This document shows positions 25,894 through 32,409 of a DNA stretch of 64,000 bases, in pieces. The notes beneath the pieces are model-generated. The model had not been told where the DNA came from, did not search any database, and saw only the letters and a program-made list of their open reading frames with translations. Position 1 is the first letter of the stretch, and every line of letters starts with the position of its first letter. This DNA comes from Nitzschia sp. pyKryTriq1 (taxonomy: Eukaryota; Bacillariophyta; Bacillariophyceae; Bacillariales; Bacillariaceae). The DNA lies in NCBI GenBank assembly GCA_956465555.1, contig OY101116.1, positions 2,418,001-2,482,000 on the forward strand, in the 5' to 3' direction. A program made the position numbers and the translations under genes.

Positions 25894-28248
25894 CTATGCC
25901 TGCTCCGCCAAACTAGGCGCCCGGTACGTTTCCATCGGCCTTTCAACGCTGCTAGAAACAAGATCAAAGATGTAGGTCGACCTGTCTTCATCGATGATTC
26001 GAATATTCCCCGAGTTTGCAAGGCTCAAAGAGGCCAGGAACAGCCGACAAACGTCGCTTTGAGTACAGCCCTTGGTCACGCTATCAAACTCGACCGTAGT
26101 GGTAGCAGCCTGGAGTACAAAGTCGAACAGTGAAGTTTGGTGAGAAAAAGAGAAAAACTGGGGCAGACATCGGAGGGAAGCAAGAGGACGATACTTACGT
26201 GTTCAGAACCGTCGCTCTTCCGTTTGATTCTTTGCAATCCTTGTCTGGCACTTTCGAGAAGATCTTCCGAGTATCGATGGATATCAAATGCAGCGCGGCG
26301 CTCTTCTTCTTCCAATATTGGTGCCAGCTTGGCCTGCCACTGATTTACACGATCAGAAAGTTTCGTGTTAAACGCGAAATCCTCTGCACCCTTTGCAAAT
26401 GCTTGAATGTGAGCACGGCAGAGTTCTTCAAAGGTCTTGCCAAGATTGGATTCTGTGTGATACATTAACAGAAAGACAAAATGATTAGACAGGGCAACTT
26501 TTGGTTTTATGACTGACTCCCCAAAACACTTACCTCCACCCGTAGATCTATCCAGTTGATAGGCTTCATCAAGTGACGCCATGCCAGCATTTCCAACATC
26601 ATTTTCGTCGTCGTTGTCGTCATCCCCACCAAAGTCAAAACCACCGCCATAGTCATCGGCGTCATCATCGTCATCGTACATGGCTTGAGAAGGTGCATCT
26701 GCTTGCGCCTCTGTGACTTTCTTTCTCTCGGCACGTCTTTCAGACGCCCGTGCCTTGGCTGTTTCCTTGGCGATGTATAGAAATTCGTCTCCAAAAATGA
26801 GACCATCAATTGGAATGGGGGGAAGCTCCTCTCGCTTCCCAAGCAATGCTTGTAGAGTCTCGACTGCCAAACTCGTGCGAGGCTCCTCCGTAGTGGAAGG
26901 TCTTGGTCGACTGACCACGCGCCGAGTGCTGGCTCCTGTGACGCACTCCGAAGGCGGCAACGTGATACCCTCGGGCAACCGGTAGGTCTTGCCCTTACGA
27001 AGCGGTTTCGAGTGAAAACCCTCACTGGAATGTGGATCCAAGAGTGCCCAGGGGTCGTCTCGTTTGACTTTGGCGGGTGCATCAGCAAAGGTGACTCGTT
27101 TAGGTGCCTCATTGGCAGTTTGTTGGGCAACGCCAACCTCTACTATCATTCCGTTATCGTCCATCATGGGAGACGGACCGCGATCCTCGTCGTCGCCATC
27201 ATCATTCATGGCAAAACCAGGCCCGTCGTCACTATGGTCATCATAATCGTCTCCAGTTGGTTGAAGTTCCATCGGTGCCTCAGCAGCATCCTCACCAAAC
27301 AAACTACGTCCTCCCTCAACATTCTCGGAGAAGCCACTTGAAACCGGTCCAGCCGTTGATGGAGCGGATTGAGATCCAGGCATGAGTAGGACCCCGTCCT
27401 CGCCTACATCGCATAATCCATCGACGAGACGAAGGCTGCCATTGTTCAAAGTCCCCAGCAAGGCTCTCTGGTGCGACGAAGAAGCAATTCCACCGAGGCT
27501 GCTGCGCTCTGCTCGAGTCACTGACAGTCCTCCCAGTGAAAGTCGCGTACGGGTGAGAGACTGATTGATAGGCGTTCCAGAAGAGGCTAATGCATCGATA
27601 TCATCATCGTCCTCCTTGAGGTTGATCTTGGTGTTGGTAAAGTCTTCGGGAACGACATCGTCGAGAAGCAGAAAATCTTCATTCGGGTCAAAATCATAGA
27701 AATCATCAATCGACGCATCTGCAGACTTGCGTCGGGACTCCTTGGCATTGGCCGACGTCGACTTGAAGAACTCGTACAAGGCTTTATATACAAGTCCATG
27801 CAGATATTCTACCTTGCGACTGTACACATTCGAGGAGTTTTGTAGAATAATGGCCGCGTGGGCGAAATTAGGAATTCCGTCTCCTTGCTGTTGCTGTCCC
27901 GAGGACGTGGCATCATCGACGTGCTGCAATTGACTACCCGAATGACCGACTAGTTCCTGAAGATATTCTTCCAAACTGAAAGCAGATCAAAGCGAGATGA
28001 GCACAGACACAAATATCATGCACTTATAAAGCAGTCCAGGCAAACTCAAAGCCGCCTTTGAGGAGGGACGATGATTGATGATTCGTCAATATTTGTACGC
28101 ACCAAGAAGCAATATCGACATCCCAGTTTCGAGACAAGTCCCGAATGGGTTGGAGAGAGGACAATGCCGACTCTAGGACGGTGTTAGATGGTGGAACTTC
28201 CGTCATGATCTTTTGTCCCTTTTTATGTTGCGTTTCCCCGTTGCCCAT
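25894..28248 (-). CDS. NCAPH2: Condensin II subunit H2 (kleisin beta), four exons
   Basis: Exons 28248-28103, 27975-26534, 26452-26199, 26109-25894; introns of 127, 81 and 89 bp, all GT-AG; 685 residues. The kleisin subunit bridges the SMC2-SMC4 heads and recruits the HEAT subunits in condensin II, which compacts chromosomes. Family landmarks are spread over all exons: LQPIRDLSRNWDVDIAS in exon 1, EEYLQELVG, NFAHAAIILQNSSNVYSRK and VEYLHGLVYKAL in exon 2, FEELCRAHIQAFAKG and RVNQWQAKLAPILEEEE with FDIHRYSEDLL in exon 3, and VCRLFLASLSLANSGNI with TYRAPSLAEQA in exon 4, the last matching the conserved end of the animal protein. Between them are acidic, disordered linkers including a GGGFDFGGDDD tract. 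A 12-C run touches the stop codon. Confidence 0.92.
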
Positions 28249-29073
28249 GGTTGTTGCTCCATTTTAATTTTAGCGCAGCAGCTCGGAACAAACGCATGTA
28301 CCGGTACTGTACCAGTAATGTACAGTACCGGTACTGTCTGTACGTACCGGTGCTGTACCGTACTGTACCTGGTACGAGTACAGCACGAGTACAGCACGAG
28401 TACAACGAACAAAAACGACGCCATCTCGAGTTTTCGGCGCGAACTTCTTCGGCGGGCAGGCGCGCAAGTCTATCGTTTGAATTTTTCTGAGTCGAATAGA
28501 TCGATGGGGGGTGTCTGATGGATGGCGGCGCGGCGGCGGATGGTGTCTGATGATGATTGATGATTTACCGGTATGTACCTGGTACTGGTACGGTGTACGG
28601 TATGTGTGATGCATGCGCATGGTGAGACACGGGTCACGGGTCGGGTGCATGCGATGACAAGACACAAGACGTGCTTGCGTTCCCGCCACCCGCCATCAAA
28701 ATTCTGTTTCTGTTTTCGCTGATGCCAGTTGTTGACGTCCCGCCTTGACGCTACCGAAGGCCATGGCATTGATATGACAGTATCCTTCACTACTCTAACT
28801 ATTTGAAACTATTGAAGCTTCTCTACTGTAGTCGCGGAATCACGATTCACTTCATCGTCGGACGATTGTTGTTTGCTACTCCTCCTACTAGTAGGGTAGG
28901 AACCCCCGGCCTGCTGTCAAAGATCATCATTCTGACTGGAAATTCTCGATATCTTGGTGTCATGAAATATTTCAGACAACCGTATCTTTGTTCCTACGTG
29001 CATTGAACACCGACGCCGCTGAATGGGAACAGTTCTCATAATTTTTCTTGCCTCGATATCGATTGCTGCTAAA
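28249..29073. promoter_or_regulatory. Divergent gap between NCAPH2 and the FAH fusion gene
   Basis: Should hold both promoters. 28295-28400 and 28565-28600 are dense in GTAC/CCGG palindromic words. A 17-codon in-frame extension upstream of the fusion gene's chosen ATG (from 29023) is hydrophobic and looks like leader rather than core protein. Confidence 0.4.
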
Positions 29074-31068
29074 ATGACCACTTGGCTGGATATTCCTAAG
29101 GATTCTGACTTTTCTTTGAAGAATATTCCTTTTGGAGTCTGCTCGTTGACGCCGTCTTCCCCTCGAAGATGTGTGACTGCCATTGGAAACAATGCGGTGG
29201 ACCTTGGAGTGCTCCAAGATGCAGGAGCCTTCATGGACATCACTGAATTGGACGGTAATGTATTTTCCGAGGCAACGCTAAATAACTATTTGGCTCACCC
29301 TCCGGAAGTTTGGCCGAAAGTTCGTCAACGAGTCATCAGTCTATTTGATGGAACGTTGGATCTTCTGAGCTCCAGTCCAGAATTGCAAGCAGCTTGCATG
29401 TACGACCTGAGCGCAGTGTCTATGCATCTGCCTTGCGAAATCGGGGATTATACTGATTTCTATTCTTCCCGTGAACATGCGACCAACGTCGGTACCATGT
29501 TCCGTGGAAAGGACAATGCATTGCAGCCCAACTGGTTACACCTTCCAGTTGGGTATCATGGACGGTCGTCAACCGTGCAAGTGAGCGGCGAGCCTGTCGT
29601 TAGACCATATGGTCAATTGCAACTCGATGCTACCGATCCAAGTAAAGGGAGCACTTATGATACTTGCAAATTGCTTGACTTTGAGTTGGAGGTTGCCTTT
29701 TTTGTCGGAGGGCCCGCCAATTCAGGCCCCATGTCCATGAAGGATGCCAAAAGACGAATCTTTGGATTCTGTTTGATGAATGATTGGTCAGCCCGTGACG
29801 TTCAAAAGTGGGAATATGTTCCGCTCGGTCCATTTACCGCCAAGAATTTTGCGACTACCATTTCACCGTGGATAGTTCCGACAGAGGCGCTGGAACCCTT
29901 CAAAACCGCCACGTCTGCGGGCAAGCAAGACAATCCTGTACCCCTGGAATATCTCCAAGATCCTGACTATTCATCTTTTGATGTTCGACTTAGTGTGGCG
30001 ATTCAATCACCGACTATGGAAAAGCCCCACGTAGTTTGCCAGTCCAATTTTGCCAACCTCTATTGGAATGCTGCCCAGCAGCTGGTTCATCATTCCGTGA
30101 CCGGATGCAAAATGAATCCTGGTGACCTACTGGCCAGTGGTACTATTTCGGGCCCTACAGAGAACTCATTTGGCAGCATGTTGGAACTAAGCTGGAAAGG
30201 AAGTCGAACTGTAGACCTTGGTGGAGGAGAAGAGCGCAAATTCCTCAGAGACGGTGATACGGTCATCATGGAAGGCTTCTCTTCGAAGGATGGTATTGGT
30301 CGAGTGGGCTTTGGAGTATGCTCTGGACAAGTTTTACCAGCTGGTACATCAATCTCTCCGGTTGTCAAAGCTCCACCAAGGTACAATAATTTCAAGCTCT
30401 ATGCGTACTGGCGTTCTTCTTCGTCGTGGCGAGTGCGAATCGCGCTTGTCGCCAAAGGCGTTCCATTTGAGGTTGTTCCCGTGAATCTTAAACTTGGGGA
30501 ACAGAAGAGTGATGGCTTTATGGAAAAGAATCCATTAGGTCAAGTTCCAGTCCTGGAATATACCGATACAGCTACCGGCTCGTTGATCTGCATGACCCAA
30601 TCTGTCACTATCATTGAGTTTTTGGATCAGGTTTTCCCTCAATCGAAGTCTCTGATCCCAACAGATCCTGACGATAAAATTGCCGCAAGTGAGATGGTCG
30701 AGGTCATCAACTCTGGTATCCAGCCGTTGCAAAACGCTCCACTCGTAAACAGTCTGGAACGCGCCTCCGAAGGGAAAATCGTTGCAAAAGACTTTGCTCA
30801 GGGCTTTATCACCAATGGCTTCAAAATGCTCGAAATTCTCATCAAACGAAGAAGAGAGAGCTCCAGACATACTGGCCCCTTCTGTCTGGGGACCTTTTCA
30901 CCCTCTATTGTGGACGCCTGCTTAGTGCCACAACTTTACAACGCTCGTCGGTTTGATGTTGATGTCGACAAAGAATTCCCAATGTTGGCAGATATTGAGG
31001 AGCGATGCTCCGGACATCCGTGGTTTGTCCCGGCGCATGCGAATGTCCAGATTGACGCAGAGATCTAA
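29074..31068 (+). CDS. Fumarylacetoacetase fused to maleylacetoacetate isomerase
   Basis: One uninterrupted exon encodes both final enzymes of tyrosine/homogentisate breakdown. From ATG 29074 (MTTWLDIPKDSDFSLKNIPF) it has 664 residues; an upstream in-frame ATG at 29023 would add MGTVLIIFLASISIAAK. Residues 1 to about 425 are fumarylacetoacetase: DYTDFYSSREHATNVGTMFR, PNWLHLPVGYHGRSSTV, LLDFELEVAFFVG and MNDWSARDVQKWEYVPLGPF carry the metal and catalytic residues; the domain closes at GVCSGQVLPAGTS. After a linker of about ten residues comes a zeta-class GST/isomerase (from about 438): FKLYAYWRSSSSWRVRIAL, MEKNPLGQVPVLEY, SVTIIEFLDQVFPQSKSLIP, INSGIQPLQNAPLV, VDACLVPQLYNARRF. The Cys of the usual SSCSWRVR motif is Ser here, while the GSH-activating Ser is kept. 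Together the two parts would turn maleylacetoacetate into fumarate and acetoacetate. Confidence 0.95.
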   Translation: MTTWLDIPKDSDFSLKNIPFGVCSLTPSSPRRCVTAIGNNAVDLGVLQDAGAFMDITELDGNVFSEATLNNYLAHPPEVWPKVRQRVISLFDGTLDLLSSSPELQAACMYDLSAVSMHLPCEIGDYTDFYSSREHATNVGTMFRGKDNALQPNWLHLPVGYHGRSSTVQVSGEPVVRPYGQLQLDATDPSKGSTYDTCKLLDFELEVAFFVGGPANSGPMSMKDAKRRIFGFCLMNDWSARDVQKWEYVPLGPFTAKNFATTISPWIVPTEALEPFKTATSAGKQDNPVPLEYLQDPDYSSFDVRLSVAIQSPTMEKPHVVCQSNFANLYWNAAQQLVHHSVTGCKMNPGDLLASGTISGPTENSFGSMLELSWKGSRTVDLGGGEERKFLRDGDTVIMEGFSSKDGIGRVGFGVCSGQVLPAGTSISPVVKAPPRYNNFKLYAYWRSSSSWRVRIALVAKGVPFEVVPVNLKLGEQKSDGFMEKNPLGQVPVLEYTDTATGSLICMTQSVTIIEFLDQVFPQSKSLIPTDPDDKIAASEMVEVINSGIQPLQNAPLVNSLERASEGKIVAKDFAQGFITNGFKMLEILIKRRRESSRHTGPFCLGTFSPSIVDACLVPQLYNARRFDVDVDKEFPMLADIEERCSGHPWFVPAHANVQIDAEI

Positions 31069-31204: not shown

Positions 31205-32409
31205 CTAATAGAATGCCGTCCTGTACATGTTGGTGATGGATTCGATGGATAGCAAAATGATCATTGCATGGGGAGCGCAACGACCATAATAGGCGGAAAA
31301 TCCGGAGAAAAAACCACGCAGTCCCTCGTTACGAGCGATCTTTGTAGTACAATCGATGATTCCCTTGTACGGAAACTCTCCAGTGAGCGGATCTGGTTTT
31401 TGGGCCATCAGACGACTTTTAATCAAGTCAAAGGGCAAGGAAAACAAAGCGGCAGTAAAACCGGCAATCGCGGAAGCACCCAGACGGGTCGGAAGTGAAG
31501 GACCGTTGGTCATTTCATCGCCCAACAAGCTAGCAACGCTTTCCTTCGCCTGATCGTAGCAAGCCATCATACCCACATTCATGGACATGCCTCTCAAAAT
31601 ATTGGGAGCGAGACCCTTGTACAAAGCGCCAACTCCTTCTTCCTTCGTGGTACGAATAAGAGCCTGACGTCAAAAAGGAAAGAAAAATAGTGAGAAACCG
31701 AAAGAGCACTAGGAAAAGGAATTTCTTGTCATCGGCCGGTACTTACATCGAACACATTTTTGTAGTTTCGTCGGTCTTCAGGCTTTGCCATACCGTCAGA
31801 CTGCAATCGCACCAAGGCAATATCAAAAGGGGTACCGATGCACACTGCAATACTTCCGCTTGCCATACCACTTAGAGTTTTCGATAGAAAGTTGATTGGC
31901 TGTCCCTCATTTCTCGCCGTGAGAATATCAGAAAATTTTCGGTGCAATCCAATTCGAGCCGTTCCATAAACCATTTGTCGTCCAATGGCGGCGTCGACAC
32001 CTTTGTAGACACTAAGAGGACCGTCATTCTTGACAATATTTGCAATGATAGTGGTGAACCCTGGAACTGGCTTTCCAGGGTTAAGTTGTCCATACAACTG
32101 CATTCTCACCTACTCAGTGGAATAAAAGTTTGAAAAACAGCATGAGCTAACACATACATGGAATAACCAATCGGAATCCAAGCGATTGCACCACTCGTTT
32201 ATTTACCTTGGCCAAGTCCATTGGATGAATAAACACCGAGGCGAAGGTCCTGCAAATTTTATCAAAAAGGAATCTTGGTTAGAGCCTGGAGGAAGCCAAA
32301 CGAAACAAACATGGTGGCCAGCATTCCGAATATCTTACGCAGCAGCTCCTCCACAAACGAAAGGTTCCAACGCCTTTGCGACAGGATTGGGAGTCTTCTC
32401 AGTTGCCAT
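31205..32409 (-). CDS. Mitochondrial 2-oxoglutarate/malate-type carrier, four exons
   Basis: Exons 32409-32339, 32249-32207, 32109-31747, 31663-31205; exon 2 is only 43 bp. Splicing gives 311 residues, standard for SLC25 carriers of the inner mitochondrial membrane. The three repeats are recognisable by their P-x-[DE]-x-x-[KR] signatures: HPMDLAKVRMQLYGQ (across a junction), GTPFDIALVRLQSDG, and LPFDLIKSRLMAQKP. The combination of YKNVFDALIRTTKEEGVGAL after the second signature and FSAYYGRCAPHAMIILLSIE at the end best matches the oxoglutarate carrier (SLC25A11) branch. That carrier exchanges 2-oxoglutarate for malate across the membrane as part of the malate-aspartate shuttle. Other dicarboxylate carriers are close relatives, so exact substrate is likely rather than certain. 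Tail to tail with the fusion gene, 136 bp apart. Confidence 0.9.

What the first reader, a model, noticed from the sequence alone, without database searches (positions are those of the whole stretch)
29074..31068. Fumarylacetoacetase and maleylacetoacetate isomerase joined in one reading frame
The last two enzymes of tyrosine breakdown sit in one 664-codon exon, in reverse of pathway order (FAH first, isomerase second), with only about ten residues between the domains. Both halves keep nearly all family landmarks, so channelling of fumarylacetoacetate between active sites is possible. I know these as separate proteins in animals and plants; whether the fusion is recorded in other diatoms I cannot tell.
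Basis: partly seen in the sequence, partly recalled or inferred. Interest (0 to 1): 0.75.

Follow-up and report, generated by a model that had tools for sequence, protein, structure and literature searches.

The report
Diatom fused tyrosine-breakdown enzyme (FAH–MAAI)
The last two enzymes of tyrosine breakdown are one continuous protein here, an arrangement found in many diatoms and partly noted before in Phaeodactylum, so the gene is real, conserved and only modestly surprising.

Summary
One uninterrupted frame at 29074-31068 (+) encodes 664 residues: fumarylacetoacetase at 4-423 (541 bits, cut-off 375), then maleylacetoacetate isomerase / zeta GST at 441-662 (186.5, cut-off 171). It is not an assembly error: of 267 proteins returned by three similarity searches, 162 carry both domains (some partial), 162 of 162 with FAH first; 105, the window included, are near full length. 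Named ones are diatoms plus the dinoflagellate Kryptoperidinium foliaceum; five carry transcriptome names and span the junction. In this genome the fusion is the only one of five MAAI matches above cut-off, and homogentisate dioxygenase is present. Most recalled catalytic positions are kept. Best reading: a bifunctional enzyme doing both last steps on one chain; channelling is unshown. Novelty is limited: PMC7780933 (passages) describes the pair under one Phaeodactylum gene, as possibly "a compound of two genes". Added here: breadth across diatoms, no ATG between the domains in the window gene, unfused genes in the same order in 7 of 80 bacterial loci, a stand-alone MAAI in Triparma, and two unidentified fusions branching outside diatom fusions plus Triparma.

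The parts
29074..31068 (+). FAH-MAAI fusion gene, single open frame, 664 codons plus TAA
29074..30342 (+). Fumarylacetoacetase domain, residues 1-423 (N-terminal PF09298 and catalytic PF01557)
30343..30384 (+). Inter-domain linker, residues 424-437, no Met codon (none from residue 400 to 482)
   Evidence: predicted confidence 91 and 88 for residues 421-430 and 431-440
30385..31065 (+). Maleylacetoacetate isomerase / zeta GST domain, residues 438-664
   Evidence: TIGR01262 186.5 bits, cut-off 171.05; MAAI/GSTZ structures
30415..30438 (+). Active-site motif region SSSSWRVR (residues 448-455), aligned with SSCSWRVR of GSTZ1
   Evidence: the role of the Ser/Cys residues is recalled
29023..29073 (+). 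In-frame 17-codon upstream extension from an earlier ATG, probably untranslated or an alternative start
   Evidence: homologue N-termini

Best explanation
The gene encodes one bifunctional enzyme. The C-terminal zeta-GST domain uses glutathione to isomerise maleylacetoacetate to fumarylacetoacetate, and the N-terminal FAH domain hydrolyses that to fumarate and acetoacetate. Fusion fixes equal amounts and co-localisation of the two enzymes that handle the reactive intermediates of homogentisate breakdown. Shown: one frame, both domains complete, conservation across named diatoms, sole above-cut-off MAAI in this genome. Inferred: both activities, dimerisation through each domain's usual interface, and any benefit from proximity.
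For: Both domains exceed equivalog cut-offs. FAH positions (mouse D126, Y128, H133, R142, Y159, E199, E201, D233, Q240, Y244, K253, T350, E364; roles and numbering recalled, mapped by eye on the alignment) and MAAI positions (S14, S15, Q71, S72, Q111; recalled) are identical in the window and in at least 95% of the other fusions that have a residue there, out of 161. 162 of 162 fusions have FAH first. The fusion is the only one of 5 MAAI-model matches above cut-off in the genome and the only match to the whole protein; homogentisate dioxygenase is present above cut-off. The model has mean pLDDT 93.9 and pTM 0.87, and each half matches solved FAH or MAAI structures.
Against: No assay, proteomics or transcript from this organism. 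The HPPD model gave only two sub-cut-off partial hits in this genome, so that upstream step is not confirmed. Four other GST-like frames lie under the MAAI cut-off and could share the isomerase role. PMC7780933 suggested the P. tricornutum gene may be two genes. The Cys16 equivalent is Ser and the FAH Gly256 equivalent is Ala here, both the commonest states among the fusions. The model is poor at residues 241-260 of the FAH half (block means 65 and 61, 249-251 under 50), a stretch that holds several of the listed FAH positions.
Confidence: 0.9

Rival explanations
1. Two adjacent genes wrongly joined by the assembly or annotation (the 'compound of two genes' reading of PMC7780933).
For: That paper's wording for Phatr3_EG02215 (passages).
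Against: 162 proteins with both domains from several sources, 105 near full length; five carry transcriptome names and span the junction: P0011, P0065, P0068, P0088, P0111. No stop between the domains and no Met from residue 400 to 482 in the window.
Confidence: 0.03
2. The fused chain is made and then cut, or a free isomerase is also made from an internal start, so two separate enzymes work in the cell.
For: 25 of 105 near-full-length fusions have a Met in the linker.
Against: The window and 79 of the other 104 have none; the linker is predicted with fairly high confidence, not as a disordered stretch.
Confidence: 0.07
3. The MAAI domain has lost isomerase activity or acts as a different glutathione transferase, and is kept for dimerisation or another role.
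For: The Cys16 equivalent is Ser in 123 of 161 fusions; the score is only modestly over the MAAI cut-off; P0099 has a poorly matching GST half, 33% identity.
Against: Ser or Ala at this site occurs in 59 of the 74 stand-alone MAAI-like proteins whose motif could be read, out of 104; the other listed residues are kept; no better MAAI candidate was found in the genome.
Confidence: 0.1
4. The fusion channels fumarylacetoacetate directly from one active site to the other (an addition to the best explanation, not an alternative).
For: Short linker (21 residues from 423 to the YWRSS motif here, 20-53 among 105); high overall pTM.
Against: No inter-domain error map or coordinates were available; linker length varies more than twofold; no kinetics.
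Confidence: 0.2

Closest known systems
Phaeodactylum tricornutum Phatr3_EG02215 (PMC7780933; passages seen)
   Same: One annotated gene with fumarylacetoacetase and GSTZ1/MAAI-like parts
   Different: The authors treat it as possibly two genes; I did not fetch its sequence
FAH structures 1qcn, 1qco (mouse, organism recalled) and MAAI/GSTZ1 structures 2cz2 (mouse), 1fw1 (human, recalled)
   Same: Each half matches over nearly its full length: FAH 50-51% identity, MAAI 36-39%
   Different: These chains are one half each; none of the 50 rows shown or covers both halves
Bacterial fah-maiA gene pairs (e.g. Rhodoferax, other Comamonadaceae)
   Same: Same order, FAH gene directly before MAAI, in 7 of 80 loci
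   Different: A stop ends the FAH frame before MAAI in all 7; in the FAH tree the fusions are not nested among the 44 bacterial rows
Triparma laevis P0175 MAAI (Bolidophyceae)
   Same: Close kin of the fused MAAI domain
   Different: 253-aa stand-alone protein with its own Met

Membership tests
Fumarylacetoacetase (TIGR01266) | Score above the curated equivalog cut-off over full length | tested here: met
   541.4 vs 375.3 bits, profile 2-419 of 420
Fumarylacetoacetase (TIGR01266) | Metal and catalytic residues (Asp126, His133, Glu199, Glu201, Asp233, Lys253, Glu364 in mouse; recalled) | tested here: met
   These seven identical in the window; nearby Gly256 is Ala
Fumarylacetoacetase (TIGR01266) | Hydrolysis of fumarylacetoacetate | not testable with these tools
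   needs an assay
Maleylacetoacetate isomerase / zeta GST (TIGR01262) | Score above the curated equivalog cut-off | tested here: met
   186.5 vs 171.05 bits, profile 1-210 of 211
Maleylacetoacetate isomerase / zeta GST (TIGR01262) | SSCxWRVR active-site motif with Cys16 (human; recalled) | tested here: inconclusive
   Motif is SSSSWRVR: Ser14, Ser15, Trp18 kept, Cys16 is Ser; Ser/Ala is frequent in stand-alone MAAI-like proteins as well
Maleylacetoacetate isomerase / zeta GST (TIGR01262) | Glutathione-dependent isomerase activity | not testable with these tools
   needs an assay
Diatom FAH-MAAI fusion | FAH first, MAAI second, one uninterrupted frame | tested here: met
Diatom FAH-MAAI fusion | Groups with named diatom fusions | tested here: met
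   FAH: the window and 14 other fusion rows (named and unnamed) on one side of a branch, SH-aLRT 100; MAAI: window with P0017 (Cylindrotheca), P0011 (Kryptoperidinium, a dinoflagellate) and unnamed P0025, 100/95

The most novel reading that the evidence does not exclude
The FAH-MAAI fusion is older than diatoms, or arose more than once. Two metagenomic fusions (P0109, P0120) branch outside the group that holds the other chosen fusions together with stand-alone MAAI of Triparma and two similar proteins (100/93), and holding all 24 chosen fusions as one clade is mildly rejected (p-AU 0.025). That would mean either an ancient fusion split again in Parmales, or a second independent fusion in the same order, and would argue for a real advantage such as channelling of the reactive intermediate.
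Probability: 0.25. Interest if true: 0.5.

Novelty: new member of a known kind. Interest (0 to 1): 0.33.

Why it matters
It makes it very likely that the two-part diatom gene is one gene rather than an annotation slip, and gives a natural system for testing whether fusing two consecutive enzymes of a pathway with reactive intermediates brings channelling. It also bears on diatom metabolic models: PMC7780933 (passages) says the P. tricornutum gene that earlier models called MAAI (Phatr3_J36390) is closer to GST alpha; the fused domain is then the better MAAI candidate. It is not a new kind of system.

Tried and rejected
Bacterial-operon origin: 7 of 80 bacterial loci carry MAAI next to FAH in the same order, none fused; the other 73 gave no MAAI match at E 1e-4 in the stretch held, which is short in some. 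In the FAH trees the fusions lie on one side of a branch, the bacteria on one side of another, and the single animal row (Anisakis) between them (fusions 100, bacteria 96; fusions 98, bacteria 89). So the fusions are not nested among these bacteria, but with one animal row, no other eukaryotes and no sure root, the origin of the FAH half is not settled.

Cys16-to-Ser as a special diatom trait: rejected, because Ser or Ala is common in stand-alone proteins.

Stand-alone MAAI in diatoms: several short hits (P0151, P0152, P0153, P0163, P0164, P0172, P0182) retain FAH C-terminal residues and look like truncated fusions; P0159 and P0186 start with their own Met and were left undecided; P0157, P0174 and P0177 begin inside the MAAI domain. 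Fusions as one MAAI clade when P0109 and P0120 are put with the stand-alone rows: not rejected (22 rows against 16, p-AU 0.141). Earlier MAAI trees needed 9, 3 and 4 changes of the fused/stand-alone label, partly because truncated fusions counted as stand-alone.

Literature: looked for this fusion (one search was for GSTZ1 Cys16 and dichloroacetate and gave nothing used). Searches listed 20 of 42, 51 and 51 papers. Among listings and passages seen, only PMC7780933 describes it. One search (fumarylacetoacet + glutathione S-transferase + diatom + fused) gave 0 papers. The library lacks most subscription journals, so absence there proves little. PMC2705460 and PMC5462543 were checked by term search only: 0 occurrences of fumaryl/maleyl, and of fumarylaceto/maleylaceto. 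PMC6688387 (three passages) reports two Seminavis fumarylacetoacetase genes down-regulated; those passages say nothing on fusion.

Not possible: no inter-domain error map was returned and no model file was in the box, so active-site distance was not measured. The organism was not identified.

Full report
What is there. The frame 29074-31068 (+) runs 664 codons without a stop. NCBIfam assigns residues 4-423 to fumarylacetoacetase (TIGR01266, 541.4 bits, cut-off 375.3) and 441-662 to maleylacetoacetate isomerase (TIGR01262, 186.5 bits, cut-off 171.05); Pfam agrees for the FAH N- and C-terminal parts and the GST N-terminal part. An upstream ATG at 29023 would add 17 residues, but most relatives printed start at or near 29074. 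By sequence the halves match solved FAH chains (best E 1.1e-135) and MAAI/GSTZ chains (best E 1.6e-35 for the isomerase half searched alone).

Is the join real? Three searches returned 267 proteins; 162 have both domains, and in all 162 FAH comes first; 104 have MAAI only and one FAH only. The 162 include the window's own protein and partial ones with only the end of FAH. Near full length was defined loosely (FAH alignment starting by residue 20, MAAI alignment reaching residue 200 of the domain query) and gave 105 including the window. These lists were drawn by similarity to the query and capped at 120 per search, so they show breadth, not frequency. Names given by sources include Fistulifera solaris, Seminavis robusta, Mayamaea pseudoterrestris, Amphora coffeiformis, Thalassiosira profunda and Cylindrotheca fusiformis; taxids in truncated names resolve to Synedropsis cf. 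recta, Leptocylindrus danicus and the dinoflagellate Kryptoperidinium foliaceum. From memory, Kryptoperidinium houses a diatom endosymbiont, the likely source of its copy. P0011, P0065, P0068, P0088 and P0111 carry transcriptome (MMETSP) names and are near full length across the junction. An assembly error at 30340-30400 is therefore excluded in practice.

Active sites. Residue roles and numbers for mouse FAH and human GSTZ1 are recalled and mapped on the printed alignments. In the 161 other fusions, with gaps for truncated ones, the FAH positions are almost invariant (H133 equivalent: 112 His, 2 other, 47 gaps; E364 equivalent: 160 Glu, 1 gap). The exception is G256: Ala 99, Gly 21, Cys 17, Leu 2, 22 gaps. 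In MAAI, Ser14 is Ser in 159 of 161 and Q111 is Gln in 154, the R175 equivalent is Arg in 136 (Lys 11), while Cys16 is Ser 123, Cys 22, Ala 14, other 2. Among 104 MAAI-only proteins the motif was read in 74: Ser 33, Ala 26, Cys 14, Thr 1. So the Ser is ordinary.

Genome setting. Of two FAA_hydrolase-family matches in the genome, the other (C4) lies in a shorter, 327-aa frame. Of five matches to the MAAI model only the fusion exceeds the cut-off; the whole protein matches only itself. Homogentisate dioxygenase is present (584.3 bits, cut-off 510.75). The HPPD model gave two partial hits below cut-off, so that step is unconfirmed, introns or divergence being possible reasons. The flanking genes on the minus strand are a condensin II CAP-H2 gene and a mitochondrial carrier gene, not obviously related by function.

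Origin. In 80 bacterial loci found with the whole protein, 7 encode MAAI directly after FAH on the same strand; in all 7 a stop ends the FAH frame first. Some bacteria thus keep the same order without fusing. In the FAH trees, 15 fusion rows (support 100) and all 105 (support 98) lie on one side of a branch, the bacterial rows on one side of another (96 and 89), and the single animal row between; both trees say the same thing, that the fusions are not nested among these bacteria, and neither roots the question. For MAAI, 22 chosen fusions and three stand-alone proteins (Triparma P0175, and unnamed P0169, P0166) form a supported group (100/93), outside which lie two metagenomic fusions, P0109 and P0120. 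Holding all 24 chosen fusions together costs 35.7 log units (p-AU 0.025); holding the 22 together apart from P0109 and P0120 costs 15.3 (p-AU 0.141). The groups were picked after earlier trees, so these values are only indicative. Either the fusion predates the split of diatoms and Parmales, or it happened twice, or the short MAAI alignment (225 columns) misleads. Whether Triparma has a separate FAH was not tested.

Prior record. PMC7780933 (passages) states that Phatr3_EG02215 of P. tricornutum carries fumarylacetoacetase and GSTZ1-like annotations and 'may actually be a compound of two genes'. I found no paper describing it as a diatom-wide bifunctional enzyme (listings, some capped at 20).

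Verdict. A genuine FAH-MAAI fusion widespread in diatoms, very probably bifunctional (0.9). Channelling is open (0.2). Interest 0.33.

Noticed in passing
window 26079-27974 (-): Condensin II subunit CAP-H2 (PF06278 and PF16858 above cut-off), flanking the fusion gene on the low-coordinate side.
   Followed up: partly
window 31208-32109 (-): Mitochondrial carrier protein in at least two open stretches (PF00153 in both), flanking the fusion gene on the high-coordinate side.
   Followed up: partly
G000:C4:450475-451107 (L001): The only other FAA_hydrolase-family match in the genome (192 bits, 327-aa frame); an FAHD1-type enzyme is a guess, not tested.
   Followed up: no
P0109, P0120: Metagenomic FAH-MAAI fusions whose MAAI halves keep SSCSWRVR and a DGG-containing loop, and which branch outside the other fusions plus Triparma MAAI. 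Host unknown.
   Followed up: partly
P0168, P0137: Gene models with repeated MAAI-like domains, by eye two in Cloeon dipterum and three in Lagenidium giganteum (the latter labelled low quality).
   Followed up: no
G000:C6:1151716-1151976 (L009) and G000:C2:3274542-3274796 (L010): Partial, below-cut-off matches to 4-hydroxyphenylpyruvate dioxygenase; a full gene was not found, perhaps because of introns or divergence (only L009's frames were listed).
   Followed up: partly
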